Source of the DNA: an uncultured Verrucomicrobiota bacterium
GTDB taxonomy: Bacteria > Verrucomicrobiota > Verrucomicrobiia > Limisphaerales > UBA9464
NCBI GenBank assembly: GCA_903916195.1
Contig: CAIWVP010000076.1
Location: 1 to 35,204 of the forward strand
Direction: 5' to 3'
DNA: 35,204 bases
Under the pieces are notes generated by a model that was not told the origin of the DNA, did not search any database, and saw only the letters and a program-made list of their open reading frames with translations. Below, piece after piece: positions 1,103 through 31,828 of this stretch (positions within the stretch are counted from its first letter, which is position 1; each line of letters opens with the position of its first letter). The translations under genes were made by a program, and so were the position numbers.

Positions 1103-2548
1103 ATGTCCACACCCGACAGCATCCCGCATCTCCCGGTCCTCCGCCTCGGCCGCAGCTACGAATCCCTCGAGAAGATCGAGGTCAAGGACCACCGCACGGG
1201 CGAGGTGAGGGCTCTCGTCTCCACCGTCAACGGCGGCATCGTGAAGCGCGACCTCGCGAAGATCGCGTCGTCGCGCGCCGCGCTGAAGAAGTTCACCGTC
1301 GCCCAGCTCATCGAGCTGTCGTCCAAGGCGGGCGAGCTCTTCCTGGGCGGCACGCTGCCGTTCGGCGACCGCGGCCACACGCAGACCCCGCAGCAGTACG
1401 TCGAGACGCTCAGCGGGACCTCCGGCCTGCCGCACGTGATGGTCCGGCGCAACATGGCCAAGCTGCACTACGCCCTCACGAACCTCGTCGAGGTGCTCAA
1501 CGGCCTGTCGCGCGGCCTCGATCTCTCGATCCTCGACCGGGGCTACGGCGAGCAGTTCGGCACCAAGCTCAGCTTCTTCCCCACCGCTTCGGCGCTCGGC
1601 CTCGTGATGCCGAGCAATTCGCCCGCGGTGAACTCGCTCTGGATCCCCGCCATCGCGCTCAAGACGCCGGTCGTCATCAAACCCGGCAGAGAAGAGCCTT
1701 GGACGCCTTACCGGTTGATCCAGGCGTTCATCGCCGCGGGCGTGCCGGCGGAGGCCTTCGGCTTCTACGCCACCGACCACGACGGAGCGGCGACCATCCT
1801 CAGCAATTGCGGACGGGCGCTCATCTTCGGTGACAAGTCCACCACCGCTCAATACGCCAACAACCCGGCCATCCAGTTGCACGGGCCGGGTTGGAGCAAG
1901 ATCCTCATCGGCGAGGACCAGATCGAGAACTGGCGCGAGCACATCGACGTGATGGTCAGCGCCATCAGCGACAACGGGGGGCGGTCCTGCATCAACGCCT
2001 CGGCCATCGTCGTGCCCCGCTACGCCGCGGAGATCGCCGAAGCGCTCGCGCAGAAGCTGGGCCCGGTGGAGCCCACGCGGCCCGACGACGAGAACGCACG
2101 GTTGTCCGGTTTCGCCAACCTCAAGATGGCCGACTTCATCGACAACCAGATCGAGGAGGGCCTGAAGACCCCCGGCGCCGAAGACGCCACCGCCCGGCAC
2201 CGCACCGGACCGCGCAAAGCCGTCTTCGAGGGCGGGACCTACATGCGCCCGACCATCGTGCGCTGCGATTCCTTCGCGCATCCGCTGGCCAACAAGGAGT
2301 TCCTCTGCCCGTACGCCAGCGTCGTGACCTGCGCGCAGGCCGACATGCTCGGCCAGATCGGCTACACGCTGGCCTGCACGGCCATCACCAAGGACCCGGC
2401 GTTCATCGAGCAGCTCGAGGCCTACCCGCACATCGAGCGGCTGAACATCGGCCCGGTCTCGACCATGAAGATCTCGTGGGACCAGCCCCACGAGGGCAAC
2501 ATGTTCGAGTTCCTCTGGCAGCGCCGGAGCATCGAGCGCGCTTGGTGA
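1103..2548 (+). CDS. Aldehyde dehydrogenase family protein lacking the general-base Glu
   Basis: A 481-residue protein with the ALDH fold. Visible: VMPSN (Asn172 at the oxyanion position), VVIKPG (Lys193, cofactor binding) and GGRSCINAS (Cys296, catalytic thiol). The position that normally reads E-L-G-G-K is LHGPGW (residues 259-264), so the general-base Glu needed for hydrolytic release is absent. Loss of this Glu is known in CoA-acylating aldehyde dehydrogenases and acyl-CoA reductases, so an acylating or reductive role is possible; this is inference. The first 150 residues are not typical ALDH. No Shine-Dalgarno is visible before the ATG. It stands divergent from the conventional ALDH gene, 158 bases away. 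Confidence 0.9.
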   Translation: MSTPDSIPHLPVLRLGRSYESLEKIEVKDHRTGEVRALVSTVNGGIVKRDLAKIASSRAALKKFTVAQLIELSSKAGELFLGGTLPFGDRGHTQTPQQYVETLSGTSGLPHVMVRRNMAKLHYALTNLVEVLNGLSRGLDLSILDRGYGEQFGTKLSFFPTASALGLVMPSNSPAVNSLWIPAIALKTPVVIKPGREEPWTPYRLIQAFIAAGVPAEAFGFYATDHDGAATILSNCGRALIFGDKSTTAQYANNPAIQLHGPGWSKILIGEDQIENWREHIDVMVSAISDNGGRSCINASAIVVPRYAAEIAEALAQKLGPVEPTRPDDENARLSGFANLKMADFIDNQIEEGLKTPGAEDATARHRTGPRKAVFEGGTYMRPTIVRCDSFAHPLANKEFLCPYASVVTCAQADMLGQIGYTLACTAITKDPAFIEQLEAYPHIERLNIGPVSTMKISWDQPHEGNMFEFLWQRRSIERAW

Positions 2549-2681
2549 ACGGCGGCCCGCTTCCTCCCGCTTACCATGGGCGTCCTGCGCGGGATGGCTT
2601 GCCCTGCGGCCGATGGTCGGGCGGGCGGCCCCTTGCTGACCGCTTGACCCGGCGGCCCCCGCACTCATCCTCCGCGGCCCT

Positions 2682-26006: not shown

Positions 26007-27494
26007 ATGTCCGGCCCGTCCCATTCTCTCGAGAACGAACTGCGCCTCGCCCGGCTGCGATCGCTCACCCGCCGCGAGTTCTTCGCCCGCAGCGGTGCCT
26101 TCAGCCTCGGCGCGATCGCCATGGCCCAGATGGGCGGCTCGTCGCTGTTCGCAGGAACTGCCGCACCGGCGCCCGGACCGCTCGCCCCCAAGGCCCCGCC
26201 GCTGCCGGGCAAGGCCAGGTCGGTCATCTACCTGCACATGTCGGGCGCGCCGCCCTCGCTCGACCTCTTCGACTGGAAGCCGAAGCTGAAGGAGCTGCAC
26301 ATGCAGGACTGCCCGGAATCGCTGATCGCGGGACAGAAGTTCGCCTTCATCCGCGGCCGCCCGAAGATGCTCGGGTCTCCGTACAAGTTCGCCCGGCACG
26401 GCCAGTCCGGCGGCTGGTTCAGCGAGGCGATCCCGCACATGGCCGGCATCGCGGACGACATCACGGTCGTGCGCTCGATGTGGACGGACCAGTTCAACCA
26501 CGCGCCGGCGGAGCTGATGGTCCATACCGGCAACATGCGCGCCGGCAGCGCCAGCATGGGGGCGTGGACCACCTACGGCCTCGGTTCGGTGAACCAGGAC
26601 CTGCCCGGGTTCGTGGTGCTGCTCAGCGGCGGCACCGATCCGACGGGCGGCAAGAGCCTCTGGGGCTCCGGTTCGTTGCCCGGCGTCTACCAGGGCACCC
26701 AATGCCGCACCACCGGCGAACCGATCCTCTACGCGGACAACCCGCCGGGCATGAGCCGCGACAGCCGTCGGCGCACGCTCGACGCGCTCAAGGCGCTCAA
26801 CGAGGCCGAGCTCCGGCAGTTCGGTGATCCGGAGACCCGGACGCGCATCGAGCAGTACGAGCTCGCCTACCGCATGCAGGTCTCCGTGCCCGACGTCTTC
26901 GACATCGCCAAAGAGCCGGAGTCGATCCGCAAGGCCTACGGCGCGAAGCCGGGCGAGGGCGGCTTCGCCAACAACTGCCTGCTCGCGCGCCGGCTCGTCG
27001 AGAAGGGCGTCCGCTTCGTCCAGCTCTACGACTGGGGCTGGGATATCCACGGCACCGGCCCGGGCGACGACCTGATGGACGCCTTCCCCAAGAAGTGCCG
27101 CGACGTCGACCAGGCGGCCGCCGCGCTCATCACCGACCTCAAGCAACGCGGCATGCTCGACGAGACGTTGGTCGTGTGGGGCGGCGAGTTCGGCCGCACG
27201 CCGATGAACGAGGCCCGCGGCGGGTCGAAGTATCTCGGGCGCGACCATCACCCGGCGTGCTTCACGCTCTGGATGGCCGGCGGAGGGATCAAGCGCGGCC
27301 ACAACCATGGCGCGACCGACGACTTCGGCTACGGCATCGTGGACGACAAGGTGACCGTCCGCGATCTGCAGACGACCCTCCTGCACCAGATGGGCCTGGA
27401 CGCCCATGCGTTCAGCTACCGCTTCCAAGGTCTGGACCAGCGCCTCATCGGCCCGACCGGCGAAGGCCGCGTGGTGAAGGAGATCCTCGCGTAG
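26007..27494 (+). CDS. DUF1501 family protein (Tat-signal, sulfatase-fold related)
   Basis: A 495-residue protein. The N-terminal tag SLTRREFFARSGAFSLGAIAM resembles a twin-arginine signal. Characteristic DUF1501 blocks: VIYLHMSGAPPSLDLFDWKP, FKFARHGQSG-like (KFARHGQSGGW), FNHAPAELMVHTG, SMGAWTTYGLGS, LARRLVEKGVRFVQLYDWGWDIHG and VVWGGEFGRTPMNE followed by GRDHHPACFT. The fold is related to alkaline-phosphatase/sulfatase-type proteins. DUF1501 genes usually pair with a PSD1 gene; this one has no PSD1 partner beside it and faces a second DUF1501 gene 31 bases away. Confidence 0.93.
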   Translation: MSGPSHSLENELRLARLRSLTRREFFARSGAFSLGAIAMAQMGGSSLFAGTAAPAPGPLAPKAPPLPGKARSVIYLHMSGAPPSLDLFDWKPKLKELHMQDCPESLIAGQKFAFIRGRPKMLGSPYKFARHGQSGGWFSEAIPHMAGIADDITVVRSMWTDQFNHAPAELMVHTGNMRAGSASMGAWTTYGLGSVNQDLPGFVVLLSGGTDPTGGKSLWGSGSLPGVYQGTQCRTTGEPILYADNPPGMSRDSRRRTLDALKALNEAELRQFGDPETRTRIEQYELAYRMQVSVPDVFDIAKEPESIRKAYGAKPGEGGFANNCLLARRLVEKGVRFVQLYDWGWDIHGTGPGDDLMDAFPKKCRDVDQAAAALITDLKQRGMLDETLVVWGGEFGRTPMNEARGGSKYLGRDHHPACFTLWMAGGGIKRGHNHGATDDFGYGIVDDKVTVRDLQTTLLHQMGLDAHAFSYRFQGLDQRLIGPTGEGRVVKEILA

Positions 27495-27525
27495 GACGGT
27501 CCGTAAGACGAGCGACTGCCGGCCG

Positions 27526-28977
27526 TCAGGCGAACAGCTTCGTGACCAGCTCGCCGTGGACGTCGGTGAGCCGGAAGTCGCGGCCTTGGAACCGGAAGGT
27601 CAGCCGCTTGTGGTCGAGCCCGAGCAGGTGGAGCACGGTCGCGTGCAGGTCGTGGACGTGCACGCGGTCGCTCACCGCGCCGAAACCGAGCTCGTCGGTC
27701 TCGCCGATGATCCGGCCCGGTTTCACGCCGCCGCCGGCGAGCCAAACGGTGAAGGCGTCGATATGGTGGTTCCGCCCGGTCTTGTCGCGGCTCTCGCCCA
27801 TGGGCGTGCGGCCGAACTCGCCGCCCCACACGACCAACGTGTCGTCGAGCAGGCCGCGCGACTTGAGGTCCTTCACCAGAGCGGCCTGCCCTTGGTCCAC
27901 CTGGTGGCAGACCTTCTCGAGGTCGGTCTCCAGGTTCTCGCCCGGGCCGCCATGGCTGTCCCAGTTGGTGTGGTAGAGCTGCACGAAGCGCACGCCGCGC
28001 TCGATGAGCCGGCGCGCCAGCAGACAGTTCCGCGCGAACGACGGCGTGTCCTTCTCCACGCCATACAACGCCAGCGTCGCGTCGGTCTCGCCGCGGAGAT
28101 CCATCGCCTCGGGCGCGCTGGTCTGCATCCGGTAGGCCATCTCGTAGGCGGCGATGCGCGTGGTGATCTCCGGGTCGCCGGTCTCGGCGAGGCGCTGGAG
28201 GTCCAGGTCCTCCACCGCGGCGATCGTGCGGCGCTGGCTCGCGTCGCCGATGGGGGCGGGCGTGGCGAGGTCGAGGATGGGTTCGCCCTGGCTGCGCAGC
28301 GGGACGCCCTGATAGCTGGTCGGCAGGAATCCGCTGCCCCAGTTCACCGCGCCGCCGCGAGGACCGCGGGGCCCGCTCTGGAGCACGACGAACCCGGGCA
28401 GGTTGTCGGCCGCGCTCCCGAGCCCGTAGGTGGCCCACGCACCCATGCTCGGCCGGCCGAACTGCGACGAGCCGGTGTTCATGAAGAGCTTCGCCGGCGC
28501 GTGGTTGAAGACGTCCGTCGCGCAGGTGCGGATGAAGCTCACGTCGTCCACGATCCCCGCCGTGCGCGGGAACAGCTCGCTCACCCACATGCCGGATTGT
28601 CCGTGACGGCGGAAGGCCCGCTTCGATCCGAGCAGCTTGGACTTGTCCTTGAACGAGCTGTCCATGAACGCGAACCGCTTGCCCGCGAGATACGAGTCAG
28701 GGATCGCCTGGCCGTTGAGCTGCGCGAGGCGCGGCTTGGGGTCGAACAGGTCGAGCTGCGACGGACCCCCAGCCATGAAGAGGTGGATGACGTTCTTGGC
28801 GCGGGCCGGATGATGCGGCGGTTTCGGCGCGAGCGGATGCGACGCGGCCGGTGCCGCGGAGAGGGCGCCACGGTCCAACAACGAACCGAGCGCGATGGAG
28901 CCGAGCCCGAGCCCGCAGCGGCCGAAGAAGTGGCGACGGGTCAGTCGAAGTAGCGGGTCGGGCGGAGTCGAAGTCAT
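27526..28977 (-). CDS. DUF1501 family protein, partner of PSD1 gene
   Basis: A 483-residue protein with a twin-arginine-like tag (RLTRRHFFGRCGLGLGSIAL) and the same blocks as its neighbour: VIHLFMAGGPSQLDLFDPKP, RRHGQSGMWVSE, FNHAPAKLFMNTG, SMGAWATYGLGS, LARRLIERGVRFVQLYHTNWDSHG and VVWGGEFGRTPMGE with TGRNHHIDAFT. It is the last gene of the reverse-strand cluster sulfatase-sulfatase-PSD1-DUF1501. The 325-base gap from the PSD1 gene, unusually long for this pair, contains a structured inverted-repeat element. Confidence 0.95.
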   Translation of the reverse strand: MTSTPPDPLLRLTRRHFFGRCGLGLGSIALGSLLDRGALSAAPAASHPLAPKPPHHPARAKNVIHLFMAGGPSQLDLFDPKPRLAQLNGQAIPDSYLAGKRFAFMDSSFKDKSKLLGSKRAFRRHGQSGMWVSELFPRTAGIVDDVSFIRTCATDVFNHAPAKLFMNTGSSQFGRPSMGAWATYGLGSAADNLPGFVVLQSGPRGPRGGAVNWGSGFLPTSYQGVPLRSQGEPILDLATPAPIGDASQRRTIAAVEDLDLQRLAETGDPEITTRIAAYEMAYRMQTSAPEAMDLRGETDATLALYGVEKDTPSFARNCLLARRLIERGVRFVQLYHTNWDSHGGPGENLETDLEKVCHQVDQGQAALVKDLKSRGLLDDTLVVWGGEFGRTPMGESRDKTGRNHHIDAFTVWLAGGGVKPGRIIGETDELGFGAVSDRVHVHDLHATVLHLLGLDHKRLTFRFQGRDFRLTDVHGELVTKLFA

Positions 28978-29047
28978 GGCCGTGTCAGAAAGATCAGCAG
29001 GTTGGGTCGCGCTGCGTTCCGCGGAGATGCAGAGCGGTTTCGTCCGT

Positions 29048-29277
29048 CCACGCCGGAGGCGTGGCAGCCATTAGCCGTGGGTCGAGCGCAGCGATACCCC
29101 CGGAACCGGCCAAAGCATGATGCACCCCGAAGGGGTGCCAGAGGCTTGAGCGACGAACGAACCGACCGATGTTGATTCTGGCACCCTTTCAGGGTGCTAC
29201 CAAAAACGTGCACAGGTCCGGGGGTGTCGCGCTCCGCGCCCACCCCCCGGCTAATGGCTGGCAGCCCTCCGGGCTGC
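29048..29277. repeat. Inverted dimer of a two-hairpin module with covarying stems
   Basis: Four perfect 7-bp/3-base hairpins: CCACGCC-GGA-GGCGTGG (29048-29064), GCACCCC-GAA-GGGGTGC (29122-29138), GCACCCT-TTC-AGGGTGC (29181-29197) and GCAGCCC-TCC-GGGCTGC (29261-29277). The right half is the reverse complement of the left in layout: the CAGCCATTAGCCG block (29065-29077) recurs inverted at about 29248-29260, as does GCGATACCCCCGGAACC as a diverged copy. Loops match exactly between halves, while stems differ by compensating changes. It fills most of the gap 28978-29302 inside the PSD1-DUF1501 unit. No gene is seen in the gap. Confidence 0.8.
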
Positions 29278-29302
29278 GTCGGCAACGCTGTCGGTTCATT
29301 GT

Positions 29303-31828
29303 TCATTCCCTTGTGATGGTCTCGTCCAGGTTCAGCAGCACGCGGGCGAGGGTCGTCCAAGCCGCGGTCTCGTCGCCCTCGCGCCGCTCTTCCGCGAGGA
29401 GCGCGACCAGACGCTCGCGTTCGGCGGGCTTCGGAGGACGCGCCAAGCAGAGGCGGAACGCGTGGTCGATCCGGTCCGGCTCCTGCGCCTCGCGGACGAC
29501 GCGCCGCGCGAGCGATCCCGCCAGTTCCACGAAGGCCTCGTCGTTCAAGAGCGTGAGCGCCTGCAGCGGGGTGTTCGAGCGCATCCGCCGCGTGCAGGCG
29601 CTGAAGGCGTCGGGCGCATCGAACACCGCCAGCGCGGGATGCGGCGTCGCGCGCCAGAAGAACGTGTAGAGCCCGCGGCGGAAACGGTCCGCTCCCGTGC
29701 TGGCCTTCCAGTCGCGCCGCGATTGTCCGAGCGCCATCACGCCGTCCGGCTGCGGCGGGAACACACCCGGCCCGCCGATCCGGCGATCGAGCCGGCCGCT
29801 CGCCGCGAGCGCCACGTCGCGGATGATCTCCGCGTCGAGCCGCAGCCGGTCCTGCCGCGCGAGCAAGCGGTTCGCAGGATCCTTCTCCGCGAGGTCCGGA
29901 CGCGCCTTCGACGACCGGCGATAGGTGGCGGAGGTGACGATGAGTCGGTGGAGGCGCTTCAGGGACCAGGATCTGGCGTCTGGGGTCTCGGGGCTGGGAT
30001 CTGGGGCCCGAGGACCGGCAGCGTGTTCCTTCCCAGACCCCGGACGCCGGACCCCGGACGCCGGTTTCATCAGCTCGACCGCCAACCAATCGAGCAGCTC
30101 GGGATGCGTCGGCGGGATGCCCTGCGTGCCGAAGTCGTTCTCGGTCTCGACGATCCCGCGCCCGAAATACTGTTGCCAGACGCGGTTCACCGCCACCCGC
30201 GCGAACAGCGGACCCGCCGGATCCACCAGCCAACGCGCGAAGTCGAGCCGCGTCGGACGCGCGCTGCCGTCCTTCGGGGCCGGGAACGGATGGAGCACCG
30301 CGGGCGTGCCCGGCGACACATCGGGTCCGCGCCGGGTGAAGTCGCCCTTGATGAACACGTACGACTCGCGCGGTTGCTTGCGCTCGGCGAGCACGAGCGT
30401 CGTGGGGATCTTCGGCTCGTCGCGACGCGACGCGCGGAGCCGTTCCTCGATCGCCCGGTATCCGGCATCGGTCCGGCAGTGCGCCTCGCGGACAAGCTTC
30501 ACCTGGGCCGGCTTGCGGTCGGCGGGGAGCAGTCCGAGCACGTTGCGGACCTCCAGCGGGAGCTTGGCCCGGGCTTCCGGCGTGAGGCCGGATTCCCACC
30601 GGACGAACATCGGCTCCAACGCCGCCAACGCCGCGTCGAGCTCGTCCTGGATCGGACGCGTCCGCGTCCGCACGGCATCACGCACGGCGCGATCGGCCGG
30701 AGTAGCGGCCTCGATGGCCGGCTCGTCCTGGTCGTTGAAGAACGCGAAGAGCTGGAAGTACTCGCGCTGCGAGACCGGGTCGAACTTGTGGTCGTGGCAG
30801 CGCGAGCAACCGACGGTCAGGCCGAGCAGCGCGATGCCGGTGGTGTCCACCCGGTCGATCACCGATTCGATGCGGAACTGCTCCGGATCGATGCCTCCCT
30901 CCTCGTTGATCTGGGTGTTGCGGTGGAACCCGGTGGCCACGCGGAGATCCTGGTTCCGGGCCTCCGCCGCCGGGCCGGTCGCCCCGACGGCCGCATCGGC
31001 CAACAGGTCGCCGGCGAGCTGCTCGACGACGAAGCGGTCGAACGGCTTGTCGTCGTTCAACGCGCCGATGACCCAATCGCGCCACGGCCAGATCGTGCGC
31101 GGGGCGTCGATGCTGTAGCCGTTCGAATCGGCGTAGCGGGCGATGTCGAGCCACCATCGGGCCCAGCGCTCGCCGTGGTGCGGCGAGGCGAGCAGCGCGT
31201 CCACCGCGCGCTCGTAGGCATCGGGCCGCGAGTCGGCGAGGAAGGCGTCGACCTCCGCCGGCGTCGGCGGCAGGCCGGTGAGGTCCAAGCTCACGCGGCG
31301 CAGCAACGTGATGCGATCGGCCTCCGGCGAAGGCGCGATCCCGGCCTGGTCGAGCCGCGCGAGGACGAATCGGTCGATCGGGTTCCGGACGCGCGACAGA
31401 TCGGCGACCGCAGGCAACTCAGGACGCTTCGGCGGGACGAACGCCCAATGCACATCCACACCGGGCTTCTCTTCTGGCGGCACCGCGGCACCGGCGGCGA
31501 CCCATCGACGCAGGACAGCGACCTGTCCCGGCGCGAGCGGCGGCTTCTTGTAGGGCATCCGCTCGAGGTCGTCGTGCGGGCCTTCGGCCACGCGGAGGGC
31601 CAGGCTCTCCGACGGCTTCCCCGGCACGAACGCCGGACCGCGTCCGCCCCCGCGGAGCGCGGCGACGGCGGTGTCGAGCCGCAGCCCACCCTTGGGCCGG
31701 TCCGCCCCATGGCACGACACGCAATGCTCGGTGAGCACCGGTTTGACCTCGCGCAGATAGTCCACCTCCGCGGCCAGCCCGGCCGACGCAAGGCAGACCA
31801 CGGACGCAGATTTCCAGAAGGGGGACAT
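29303..31828 (-). CDS. PSD1 and planctomycete cytochrome c domain-containing protein
   Basis: An 841-residue exported protein: short signal peptide, a C-type heme motif CVSCHG (36-41, PSCyt1 domain), PSCyt2 region with HWAFVPPKRPELP and NPIDRFVLARL, a second CSRCHDHKFDPVSQ motif, and the C-terminal PSD1 domain (TRLDFARWLVDP, ARVAVNRVWQQYFGRGIVETENDFG, RMRSNTPLQALTLLND). Its function is unknown, but it nearly always pairs with DUF1501. An unusual segment of about 31 residues rich in Pro/Gly/Arg (codons 30064-29966) interrupts the conserved stretch between LAVELM and SWSLKRLH. The 129-base gap to the upstream sulfatase suggests cotranscription. Confidence 0.95.
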   Translation of the reverse strand: MSPFWKSASVVCLASAGLAAEVDYLREVKPVLTEHCVSCHGADRPKGGLRLDTAVAALRGGGRGPAFVPGKPSESLALRVAEGPHDDLERMPYKKPPLAPGQVAVLRRWVAAGAAVPPEEKPGVDVHWAFVPPKRPELPAVADLSRVRNPIDRFVLARLDQAGIAPSPEADRITLLRRVSLDLTGLPPTPAEVDAFLADSRPDAYERAVDALLASPHHGERWARWWLDIARYADSNGYSIDAPRTIWPWRDWVIGALNDDKPFDRFVVEQLAGDLLADAAVGATGPAAEARNQDLRVATGFHRNTQINEEGGIDPEQFRIESVIDRVDTTGIALLGLTVGCSRCHDHKFDPVSQREYFQLFAFFNDQDEPAIEAATPADRAVRDAVRTRTRPIQDELDAALAALEPMFVRWESGLTPEARAKLPLEVRNVLGLLPADRKPAQVKLVREAHCRTDAGYRAIEERLRASRRDEPKIPTTLVLAERKQPRESYVFIKGDFTRRGPDVSPGTPAVLHPFPAPKDGSARPTRLDFARWLVDPAGPLFARVAVNRVWQQYFGRGIVETENDFGTQGIPPTHPELLDWLAVELMKPASGVRRPGSGKEHAAGPRAPDPSPETPDARSWSLKRLHRLIVTSATYRRSSKARPDLAEKDPANRLLARQDRLRLDAEIIRDVALAASGRLDRRIGGPGVFPPQPDGVMALGQSRRDWKASTGADRFRRGLYTFFWRATPHPALAVFDAPDAFSACTRRMRSNTPLQALTLLNDEAFVELAGSLARRVVREAQEPDRIDHAFRLCLARPPKPAERERLVALLAEERREGDETAAWTTLARVLLNLDETITRE
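29975..30062. repeat. Repeat insertion inside the PSD1 gene
   Basis: GGCGTCTGGGGTCT (29975-29988) is inverted with one mismatch against AGACCCCGGACGCC (30035-30048), and a second near copy GGACCCCGGACGCC follows directly (30049-30062). The segment keeps the reading frame. Confidence 0.6.

What the first reader, a model, noticed from the sequence alone, without database searches (positions are those of the whole stretch)
29048..29277. Inverted dimer of hairpin modules with compensatory base changes inside an operon
Left and right halves are diverged inverted copies. Hairpin A is CCACGCC/GGCGTGG on the left and GCAGCCC/GGGCTGC on the right (read inverted), both with loop GGA; hairpin B is GCACCCC/GGGGTGC and GCACCCT/AGGGTGC, both with loop GAA. 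Loops are invariant while stems change on both sides. This is strong internal evidence of selection on structure, in RNA or single-stranded DNA. It sits between PSD1 and DUF1501 genes that are normally tightly linked, so it may affect mRNA stability or relative expression.
Basis: seen in the sequence. Interest (0 to 1): 0.75.

Follow-up and report, generated by a model that had tools for sequence, protein, structure and literature searches.

The report
Mobile hairpin pair in an operon
The paired hairpins look like one copy of a small mobile DNA element inserted between two genes of a bacterium (probably a verrucomicrobial one), and the same end pieces bracket a group of small transposase genes in several bacterial phyla, including pieces that a database lists as a bacterial RNA.

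Summary
A model of it gives 39 matches in this genome and matches in 30 of 57 relatives; stems covary. It is best read as a non-autonomous mobile element, not an operon-specific RNA. (1) A close relative lacks 339 bp here (28962-29300), and there PSD1 and DUF1501 overlap by ATGA. Six of ten other dimers are also absent at their sites there. (2) A TnpA-Y1 transposase gene of this genome lies between two half-units in the dimer's orientation; 48 of the 80 named-genome relatives kept (best of 550) show this on both sides. Inverted repeats flank 37/57, 60/79 and 20/24 such genes, against 1/11 other Y1 transposases (sets overlap slightly). (3) The protein carries the motif of TnpA-Y1 subclass 1.2, described as generally without terminal structures (PMC6006769). 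(4) Rfam's Acido-Lenti-1 "sRNA" overlaps the same units in 13 of 63 loci, mostly below threshold. Movement by this transposase is inferred, not shown. New variant of a known kind (REPIN/RAYT-like).

The parts
28962..29300 (.). whole inserted segment (339 bp) absent from the orthologous site of the close relative G003
   Evidence: BLAST: L292 1-1494 = window 27458-28961 (94%), L292 1496-3755 = window 29301-31560 (92%), one base between
29048..29141 (-). left half-unit (B-C-A read on the - strand)
   Evidence: model R1 91.8 bits; a training member of the model
29178..29277 (+). right half-unit (B-C-A read on the + strand)
   Evidence: model R1 91.7 bits; a training member of the model
29048..29064 (-). 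hairpin A of the left half-unit (stem 7 bp, loop TCC on unit strand)
   Evidence: sequence, fold, covariation of helix 3
29065..29074 (-). 10-nt linker CTAATGGCTG between hairpins C and A (left)
   Evidence: sequence; in 120 selected units the linker is 10 nt in 115 and GGCTA is present in 114
29075..29103 (-). hairpin C of the left half-unit
   Evidence: sequence, helix 2
29122..29138 (-). hairpin B of the left half-unit, preceded on its strand by CTG (29139-29141)
   Evidence: sequence, helix 1
29142..29177 (.). centre of the dimer (36 bp); the place that the tnpA gene occupies in the gene-bearing arrangement
   Evidence: compare L013: half-unit 1701-1796(-), tnpA 1809-2252(+), half-unit 2287-2387(+)
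29181..29197 (+). hairpin B of the right half-unit, preceded by CTG (29178-29180)
   Evidence: sequence, helix 1
29218..29250 (+). hairpin C of the right half-unit; with linker and hairpin A a sub-threshold Acido-Lenti-1 match at 29218-29276
   Evidence: (22.9 bits, gathering 37), helix 2
29251..29260 (+). 10-nt linker CTAATGGCTG between hairpins C and A (right)
29261..29277 (+). hairpin A of the right half-unit
   Evidence: sequence, helix 3
27526..28977 (-). DUF1501 gene; its start codon and first codons (MTSTP) lie in the insert, the relative starts MNADPLLRL at the ATGA overlap
   Evidence: Pfam E 1e-156
29303..31828 (-). PSCyt1-PSCyt2-PSD1 gene upstream in the operon; the insert lies just after its stop
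   Evidence: Pfam

Best explanation
The feature is a copy of a non-autonomous mobile DNA element (REPIN/MITE-like), about 340 bp as inserted here, whose core is two inverted copies of a three-hairpin module arranged A-C-B | B-C-A. The gene-bearing form is the same arrangement with a ~147-aa HUH-Y1 transposase gene (TnpA-Y1 subclass 1.2 type) in the centre. Likely mechanism: when the strand is single-stranded (as at a replication fork) the modules fold; the transposase, acting in trans, recognises the hairpins and the conserved CTA linker, cuts and rejoins the strand with its HUH and tyrosine residues, and so excises or copies the dimer to new sites. Shown here: the module and its covariation, dispersal, presence/absence between close relatives, and the regular placement of modules around transposase genes. 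Inferred: that this transposase moves the dimers, that the substrate is single-stranded DNA, the cut sites, and that the window site was empty first. Landing here would have split an ATGA-overlapping gene pair and given DUF1501 a new start.
For: Dispersed family: 49 BLAST pieces in the own genome, 39 model matches (26 of them in the training set), matches in 30 of 57 relatives, 0 to 67 each (at most 70 candidates scored per genome, so lower bounds). Twelve dimers outside the transposase locus all have the order (-,+), i.e. A-C-B | B-C-A. Six near-identical dimers have unrelated flanks. Empty sites: window 28962-29300 absent in G003; of ten further G000 dimers queried, six gave one match across the joined flanks, with 305-446 bp in G000 against -4 to 87 bp in G003. 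Transposase: PF01797 E 1e-20, NCBIfam IS200/IS605 above cut-off, PDB transposases 2fyx, 2xm3. Placement: outward half-units on both sides of 48 of 80 genes in named genomes, 8 on one side only, 7 inward only, 17 none (on the table). De novo inverted repeat of 40 bits or more flanking the gene: 37 of 57 loci in this genome and relatives against 1 of 11 other Y1 genes and 6 of 300 mismatched pairs; 60 of 79 against 37 of 396; 20 of 24 in the phylum of G059 against 3 of 200. Co-occurrence in 57 relatives: 25 of 36 genomes with 5 or more R1 or RF01687 matches have the gene, against 6 of 21 others (Fisher p 0.003).
Against: No excision, cleavage or transposition was observed. G003 carries 23 model matches but no transposase of this clade was found (89% complete). 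11 of 36 carrier genomes lack the gene. R1 copy number is higher only in genomes with a close gene (p 0.0016 at 125 bits, 0.008 at 150), not at 100 or 110 bits (p 0.17, 0.12) or with any such gene (p 0.09) (own genome left out; cut-offs mine). 20 of 57, 19 of 79 and 4 of 24 loci lack a 40-bit flanking repeat. Both Bacteroidetes loci (L285, L289) fail. No target-site duplication except a possible 4-bp AGCC at C58. The centres of eight dimers show no transposase remnant (only 7-8 base matches). Presence/absence alone does not say which state is ancestral; the loci tested are the best matches, not a random sample, and the sets overlap (L230/L343, L241/L064, L254/L066, L257/L067).
Confidence: 0.84

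Rival explanations
1. A structured RNA in the PSD1-DUF1501 mRNA (stabiliser, terminator or expression tuner) kept for its effect on this operon.
For: Very stable fold of the transcribed strand (z -9.4); covariation; position between two co-directional genes; REPs are reported to affect mRNA (passage of PMC6006769, abstract of PMC3733652).
Against: Same module at many other loci, absent at this site in a close relative, bracketing a transposase gene in several phyla. G-T (31) and A-C (44) pairs are both rare among 2607 cells, unlike what is usual for RNA helices (recalled). Gene context of the other copies was not analysed.
Confidence: 0.07
2. An Acido-Lenti-1 small RNA gene (RF01687), with two inverted copies.
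For: Sub-threshold matches on both halves (22.9 and 18.4 bits, gathering 37) and the same anatomy (alignments).
Against: Below the gathering score here. RF01687 matches themselves are dispersed (44 of 57 relatives), 7 of 11 loci scanned are inverted pairs, and some lie at both sides of transposase genes.
Confidence: 0.04
3. A REP/BIME-type element moved by another agent (a class 2 RAYT or an unrelated transposase), the subclass-1.2 gene being just another passenger.
For: Carrier genomes without the gene (11 of 36); Y1_Tnp genes of some kind are present in 52 of 58 genomes searched, own included.
Against: The subclass-1.2-like genes are the ones bracketed by inverted modules; 1 of 11 other Y1 genes has a 40-bit flanking repeat, and none of L010-L012 has a module.
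Confidence: 0.12

Closest known systems
REPIN / BIME (inverted REP doublets) with RAYT transposases
   Same: Inverted doublet of hairpin units, dispersed, found beside a Y1 transposase gene (definition from passages of PMC3116915 and PMC6006769).
   Different: Half-unit of ~100 nt with three hairpins instead of one; foot mostly CTG, not GTAG or CGTC; transposase with Y---Q--HH, not the class 2 Y..NP motif.
TnpA-Y1 subclass 1.2 (Quentin et al. 2018, PMC6006769; sections 13, 17, 18, 27 and passages read)
   Same: DH[VI]H, WQ, Y---Q--HH, ~147 aa.
   Different: Described as generally without terminal structures, low copy, mostly Cyanobacteria and Bacteroidetes; here flanked by inverted modules in most loci tested from other phyla, up to 21 matches in one genome, fragments included.
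TIRtron / TIRYT (PMC3733652, section 16 and passages read)
   Same: Y1 transposase gene between long inverted repeats, with dispersed repeats of the same kind.
   Different: 20 of the 26 described were placed in subclass 2.1 with an HTH domain, and a GGGG[AT][CG]A[CG] motif in most repeats (passage of PMC6006769); I do not see that motif in the consensus.
Acido-Lenti-1 RNA, RF01687 (PMC2864571, one table line seen)
   Same: Hairpin ending in GG, CUA-starting linker, terminal hairpin: hairpins C and A of the half-unit. R1 and RF01687 overlap on one strand in 13 of 63 transposase loci scanned with both.
   Different: Annotated as an sRNA; lacks hairpin B and the inverted partner. Only in 3 of those 13 loci (L077, L080, L351) does an overlapping RF01687 match reach gathering.
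IS200/IS605 (IS608, ISDra2)
   Same: Transposase fold by sequence, subterminal hairpins.
   Different: Their end hairpins lie in direct orientation on one strand (recalled); here the ends are inverted.

Membership tests
IS200/IS605-type element | Y1_Tnp domain with HUH and catalytic Y | tested here: met
   PF01797 E 1e-20; NF033573 61.6 bits, cut-off 55; D54 H55 H57 and Y113 invariant in 26 sequences
IS200/IS605-type element | end hairpins in direct orientation (recalled) | tested here: not met
   flanking half-units are mostly inverted: left - 57, right + 50, left + 6, right - 6
TnpA-Y1 subclass 1.2 | Y---Q--HH, DH[IV]H, WQ, ~148 aa | tested here: met
   P0001 has all, 147 aa; in alignment A2 Y113, H120, W93, Q94 invariant, Q117, H121 at least 90%
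TnpA-Y1 subclass 1.2 | placement inside the published subclass tree | not tested
   no tree with the published sequences was built
TnpA-Y1 subclass 1.2 | generally no terminal structures (as described) | tested here: not met
   inverted repeats at 37/57, 60/79, 20/24 loci; the two Bacteroidetes loci do lack them
REPIN | inverted doublet of hairpin repeats, dispersed | tested here: met
REPIN | GTAG or CGTC tag at the hairpin foot | tested here: not met
   B foot CTG in 77 of 120; 4 nt before A GCTG or TCTG in 62 of 120 (commonest entries seen)
REPIN | cognate class 2 RAYT | tested here: not met
   bracketed gene has Y---Q--HH; L010-L012 without modules
Class 3 REPtron | foot CnGA and YV[VI][AENY]EQ | tested here: not met
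   definition from PMC6006769 sections 17, 27
Acido-Lenti-1 RNA RF01687 | score above gathering (37 bits) for the window copy | tested here: not met
   22.9 and 18.4 bits
Acido-Lenti-1 RNA RF01687 | is transcribed as a small RNA | not testable with these tools
   no expression data
non-autonomous mobile element | presence/absence at orthologous sites | tested here: met
   window site plus six of ten others absent in G003
non-autonomous mobile element | moved by the proposed transposase | not testable with these tools
   needs biochemistry or population sequencing

The most novel reading that the evidence does not exclude
Subclass-1.2 Y1 transposases across Verrucomicrobiota, Planctomycetota, Acidobacteriota, Armatimonadota, Sumerlaeota and others form one class of HUH mobile elements with inverted, three-hairpin ends and an army of non-autonomous dimers; Rfam's Acido-Lenti-1 'sRNA' is not an RNA gene but the outer part of these ends; and because the ends are inverted, strand transfer must differ from the IS200/IS605 scheme.
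Probability: 0.5. Interest if true: 0.72.

Novelty: new variant of a known kind. Interest (0 to 1): 0.6.

Why it matters
It proposes a substrate for a transposase group that was described without one, links it to an abundant repeat class in under-studied phyla, and makes the claim testable with one protein and one 100-nt oligonucleotide. It also suggests that a catalogued 'small RNA' family should be re-examined as mobile DNA, which would correct many genome annotations. Locally, it shows an insertion parting an ATGA-overlapping operon pair.

Tried and rejected
Operon-specific RNA: rejected as main reading (dispersal, empty site). Acido-Lenti-1 RNA gene: rejected for the window copy by score, kept as a related label. 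GTAG/CGTC REP and class 3 REPtron: feet and Y motifs do not fit. Rfam hits such as mir-505 and MIR1437: far below gathering, taken as chance matches to hairpins. Cmscan of six G000 loci (L013, L014, L016, L017, L020, L021) gave no Rfam match at E 0.5 or less, and the own genome has one RF01687 match, so the link to RF01687 rests on units elsewhere. Target-site duplication: sought at seven empty sites, only a possible AGCC at C58. Strand test by wobble pairs: no clear strand. Transposase remnants in the centres of eight dimers: none. Of the ten flank pairs, C142 is filled in G003; C28 lacks the dimer but has 153 bp of other sequence, so I left it out of the six; C117 and C90 matched on separate contigs or in part and are undecided. 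A search for papers on verrucomicrobial dispersed palindromes with five terms found none.

Rows dropped: four of 31 core matches (two unrelated, two without an intact hairpin B) before the reference list, and L022:480-572 before alignment A1 (26 rows; four starts were set 1-4 bases further out than). From A2 four of the 30 loci L061-L090 were left out: L067, L086, L089 (stops inside) and L072 (partial). One search tested 57 of the matches listed; the others, all partial, were not fetched. Its controls were 13 other Y1 loci picked, of which L200 and L204 gave no test; their flanks were taken from stop-to-stop frames, so a start may be misplaced. One search kept the best 80 of 550; one search tested 79 of 80 (L271 too short). 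One search tested 24 of the 30 loci (L362-L367, weak or partial, left out); one search took 20 of those 24. One search took 11 of the 20 loci. Alignment A4 used only the 48 loci with modules on both sides. The first wobble count left out the outermost pair of hairpin A; one search includes it.

Not tested: gene context of the copies, a transposase tree, structure prediction, Cyanobacteria.

Full report
What is there. The whole 230 nt fold better than all 200 shuffles (z -7.4 as DNA, -9.4 as RNA).

It is a dispersed family. BLAST of the 230 bp against the own genome (G000, 4.39 Mb, 211 contigs) gives 49 pieces. A covariance model R1, built from 26 half-units of this genome, gives 39 matches there (the 26 match by construction, and the last three score only 36-37 bits) and matches in 30 of 57 relatives, up to 67 per genome (at most 70 candidates per genome were scored, so the counts are lower bounds). 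In one search twelve pairs outside the transposase locus are dimers, all in the order A-C-B | B-C-A. Stems covary: 91.0% of 569 cells paired, 51 both-side changes against 14.2 in shuffles, and 33-52% paired when partners are slid. In 120 half-units from 48 selected loci of named genomes the figures are 94.5% and 409 against 124.5 (fitted alignment, related sequences).

It moves, or is gained and lost. Six near-identical dimers in G000 sit in unrelated flanks, and their similarity runs some 40 bp beyond hairpin A on each side, to a further inverted stretch GGGCGCA.../...TGCGCCC. At the window's own site a close relative, G003, has 92-94% identical DNA on both sides and nothing in between: window 28962-29300 (339 bp) is replaced by a single base; R1 finds no module there. 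In G003 the PSD1 stop and the DUF1501 start overlap (GAATGAAC), and DUF1501 begins MNADPLLRL; in the window it begins MTSTPPDPLLRL, the first codons lying in the insert. So the insertion, if that is the direction, parted two overlapping genes and left DUF1501 with another start codon. I joined the outer flanks of ten further G000 dimers and searched G003: six gave one match running across the join, i.e. the dimer is absent (C81, C58, C9, C141b, C27, C141a), with 305-446 bp in G000 against -4 to 87 bp in G003. C142 is filled in G003; C28 lacks the dimer but has other sequence; C117 and C90 are undecided.

A transposase gene fills the centre. G000 has four Y1_Tnp matches. Three (L010-L012) have no module in the stretch held. 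The fourth, 147 aa (P0001), lies in L013 between half-units 1701-1796(-) and 2287-2387(+), with two more half-units outside (1512-1612(+), 2455-2552(-)): the window's arrangement with a gene in the middle. P0001 is a Y1 transposase by Pfam (E 1e-20), NCBIfam (IS200/IS605, above cut-off) and PDB sequences (2fyx, 2xm3). In an alignment with 25 relatives D, H, H of the HUH motif, WQ, Y and the first H of Y---Q--HH are invariant, Q and the last H at least 90%. This is the signature that Quentin et al. 2018 give for subclass 1.2, together with the words that it is generally without typical terminal structures (PMC6006769, sections 17 and 18 read).

Is the arrangement general? I compared the 250 bp on either side of each gene as an inverted repeat, without the model. 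A repeat of at least 40 bits flanks 37 of 57 genes of this clade in this genome and its relatives, against 1 of 11 other Y1 genes and 6 of 300 mismatched pairs. In the 80 best loci of named genomes (best of 550: mainly Verrucomicrobiota and Planctomycetota, with Acidobacteriota, Armatimonadota, Sumerlaeota, a Victivallales, Proteobacteria and Bacteroidetes, as the record titles name them) it is 60 of 79 against 37 of 396 (mismatched pairs also match there, probably because the ends are related). In the phylum of the Blastocatellia genome G059, 25 of 80 genomes have a match to the protein alignment and 20 of 24 loci tested have the repeat, against 3 of 200. With R1, half-units in outward orientation lie within 150 bp on both sides of 48 of 80 genes, on one side of 8, inward only in 7, none in 17. 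Both Bacteroidetes loci (L285, L289) fail on both tests. In the selected units the linker is 10 nt in 115 of 120 and GGCTA is present in 114 of 120.

Which organism. L241 (G006, same genus), L254 (G014) and L257 (G056) bear the titles Verrucomicrobia or Verrucomicrobiales, so it is probably a verrucomicrobial MAG; this is inference.

Link to Acido-Lenti-1. Rfam gives sub-threshold matches on both halves of the window copy, none at E 0.5 or less in six other G000 loci, and one in the own genome. Of 63 transposase loci scanned (E limits 10, 10, 1, 1) 23 carry an RF01687 match, 7 of them one at or above gathering (L077, L080, L083, L088, L348, L351, L358). L080 has matches at 1288-1333(-), 1448-1493(+, sub-threshold), 2003-2048(-) and 2163-2208(+): a whole inverted pair on each side of the gene at 1501-1944. 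L351 and L358 have one outward on each side, and in G059 the gene C10:267961-268389 has RF01687 at 267845-267890(-) and 268446-268491(+), both over the cut-off. The alignments show the anatomy: stem ending GG, CUA linker, terminal hairpin, that is hairpins C and A. R1 and RF01687 overlap on the same strand in 13 of the 63 loci: L067, L069, L072, L074, L077, L080, L084, L251, L279, L344, L346, L351 and L368; in three of them (L077, L080, L351) the overlapping match reaches gathering. RF01687 matches 44 of 57 relatives and 15 of 16 genomes that carry the gene, 12 of 16 over the cut-off. Of 11 RF01687 loci scanned, out of 20 fetched, 7 are inverted (-,+) pairs, one is tandem, three single; among the 88 G059 rows printed there are 17 (-,+) pairs within 250 bp and none in the other order. 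The original paper lists the motif for Acidobacteria and Lentisphaerae, marked y in the column 'RNA?' (PMC2864571, one table line seen). A search for 'Acido-Lenti-1' listed three papers, of which I looked into that one only; a search with RF01687, RAYT and TIRYT listed none that joins them among the 15 shown. That is all I can say about print.

Mechanism. I think the dimer is moved in trans by the subclass-1.2 transposase acting on folded single-stranded DNA. Shown: dispersal, presence/absence, structure, orderly placement around the gene. Inferred: the mover, the single-stranded substrate, the cut sites. Hairpins A of the two arms of the window copy differ in stem sequence and fold locally in the predicted structure while the linkers pair across, which fits two separate protein sites at the ends. 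G-T (31) and A-C (44) pairs are few among 2607 cells, no sign of RNA-level selection on either strand. Co-occurrence: in 57 relatives, 25 of 36 genomes with 5 or more R1 or RF01687 matches have the gene against 6 of 21 others (p 0.003), and RF01687 counts are higher with the gene (p 0.0004). Against: R1 counts are higher only with a close gene (p 0.0016 at 125 bits, 0.0017 at 140, 0.008 at 150; 0.17 at 100, 0.12 at 110; any gene 0.09), G003 has modules but no gene found, and 11 of 36 carriers lack it. MAG incompleteness and assembly breaks at repeats may explain part of this; several G000 copies lie at contig ends (C148, C126, C62, C105).

Compared with what is known. It works like a REPIN with its RAYT (passages of PMC3116915; abstract and outline of PMC8266576 seen) but fails the tests for the tagged REP families and for class 2 and class 3 transposases. 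It resembles the TIRtrons of PMC3733652 (section 16 read), most of which were assigned to another subclass. I file it as a new variant of a known kind.

Noticed in passing
window 28962-28977: The DUF1501 start codon and its first codons lie in the insert; the relative starts at the ATGA overlap. A case of an insertion supplying a new start.
   Followed up: partly
L013 1400-1480 and 2225-2255: By eye, the end of a second, diverged transposase copy precedes the first module pair: the gene and its modules look tandemly duplicated.
   Followed up: no
L015 around 1242 (- strand): A different repeat-like stretch with CCCGGCTAAAGCCGGGTGC, possibly another palindromic family of this genome.
   Followed up: no
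six dimers of G000: An outer inverted stretch GGGCGCA...CAGTTTCTTGCAG / CTGCAAGAAAC...TGCGCCC lies beyond hairpin A in one subfamily and may mark the true ends.
   Followed up: partly
L022 405-572: The linker-plus-hairpin-A part is repeated in tandem (CTAATGGCTGGCAGCC...) with a degenerate C hairpin between.
   Followed up: no
L130 1665-1777: Match of 44.3 bits to the microRNA family MIR9772 (gathering 64), probably a chance match to a long palindrome.
   Followed up: no
window 26007-27494 and 27526-28977: Two DUF1501 genes meet tail to tail; part of the first matches G003's copy of the second at 70% over 430 aligned columns.
   Followed up: no
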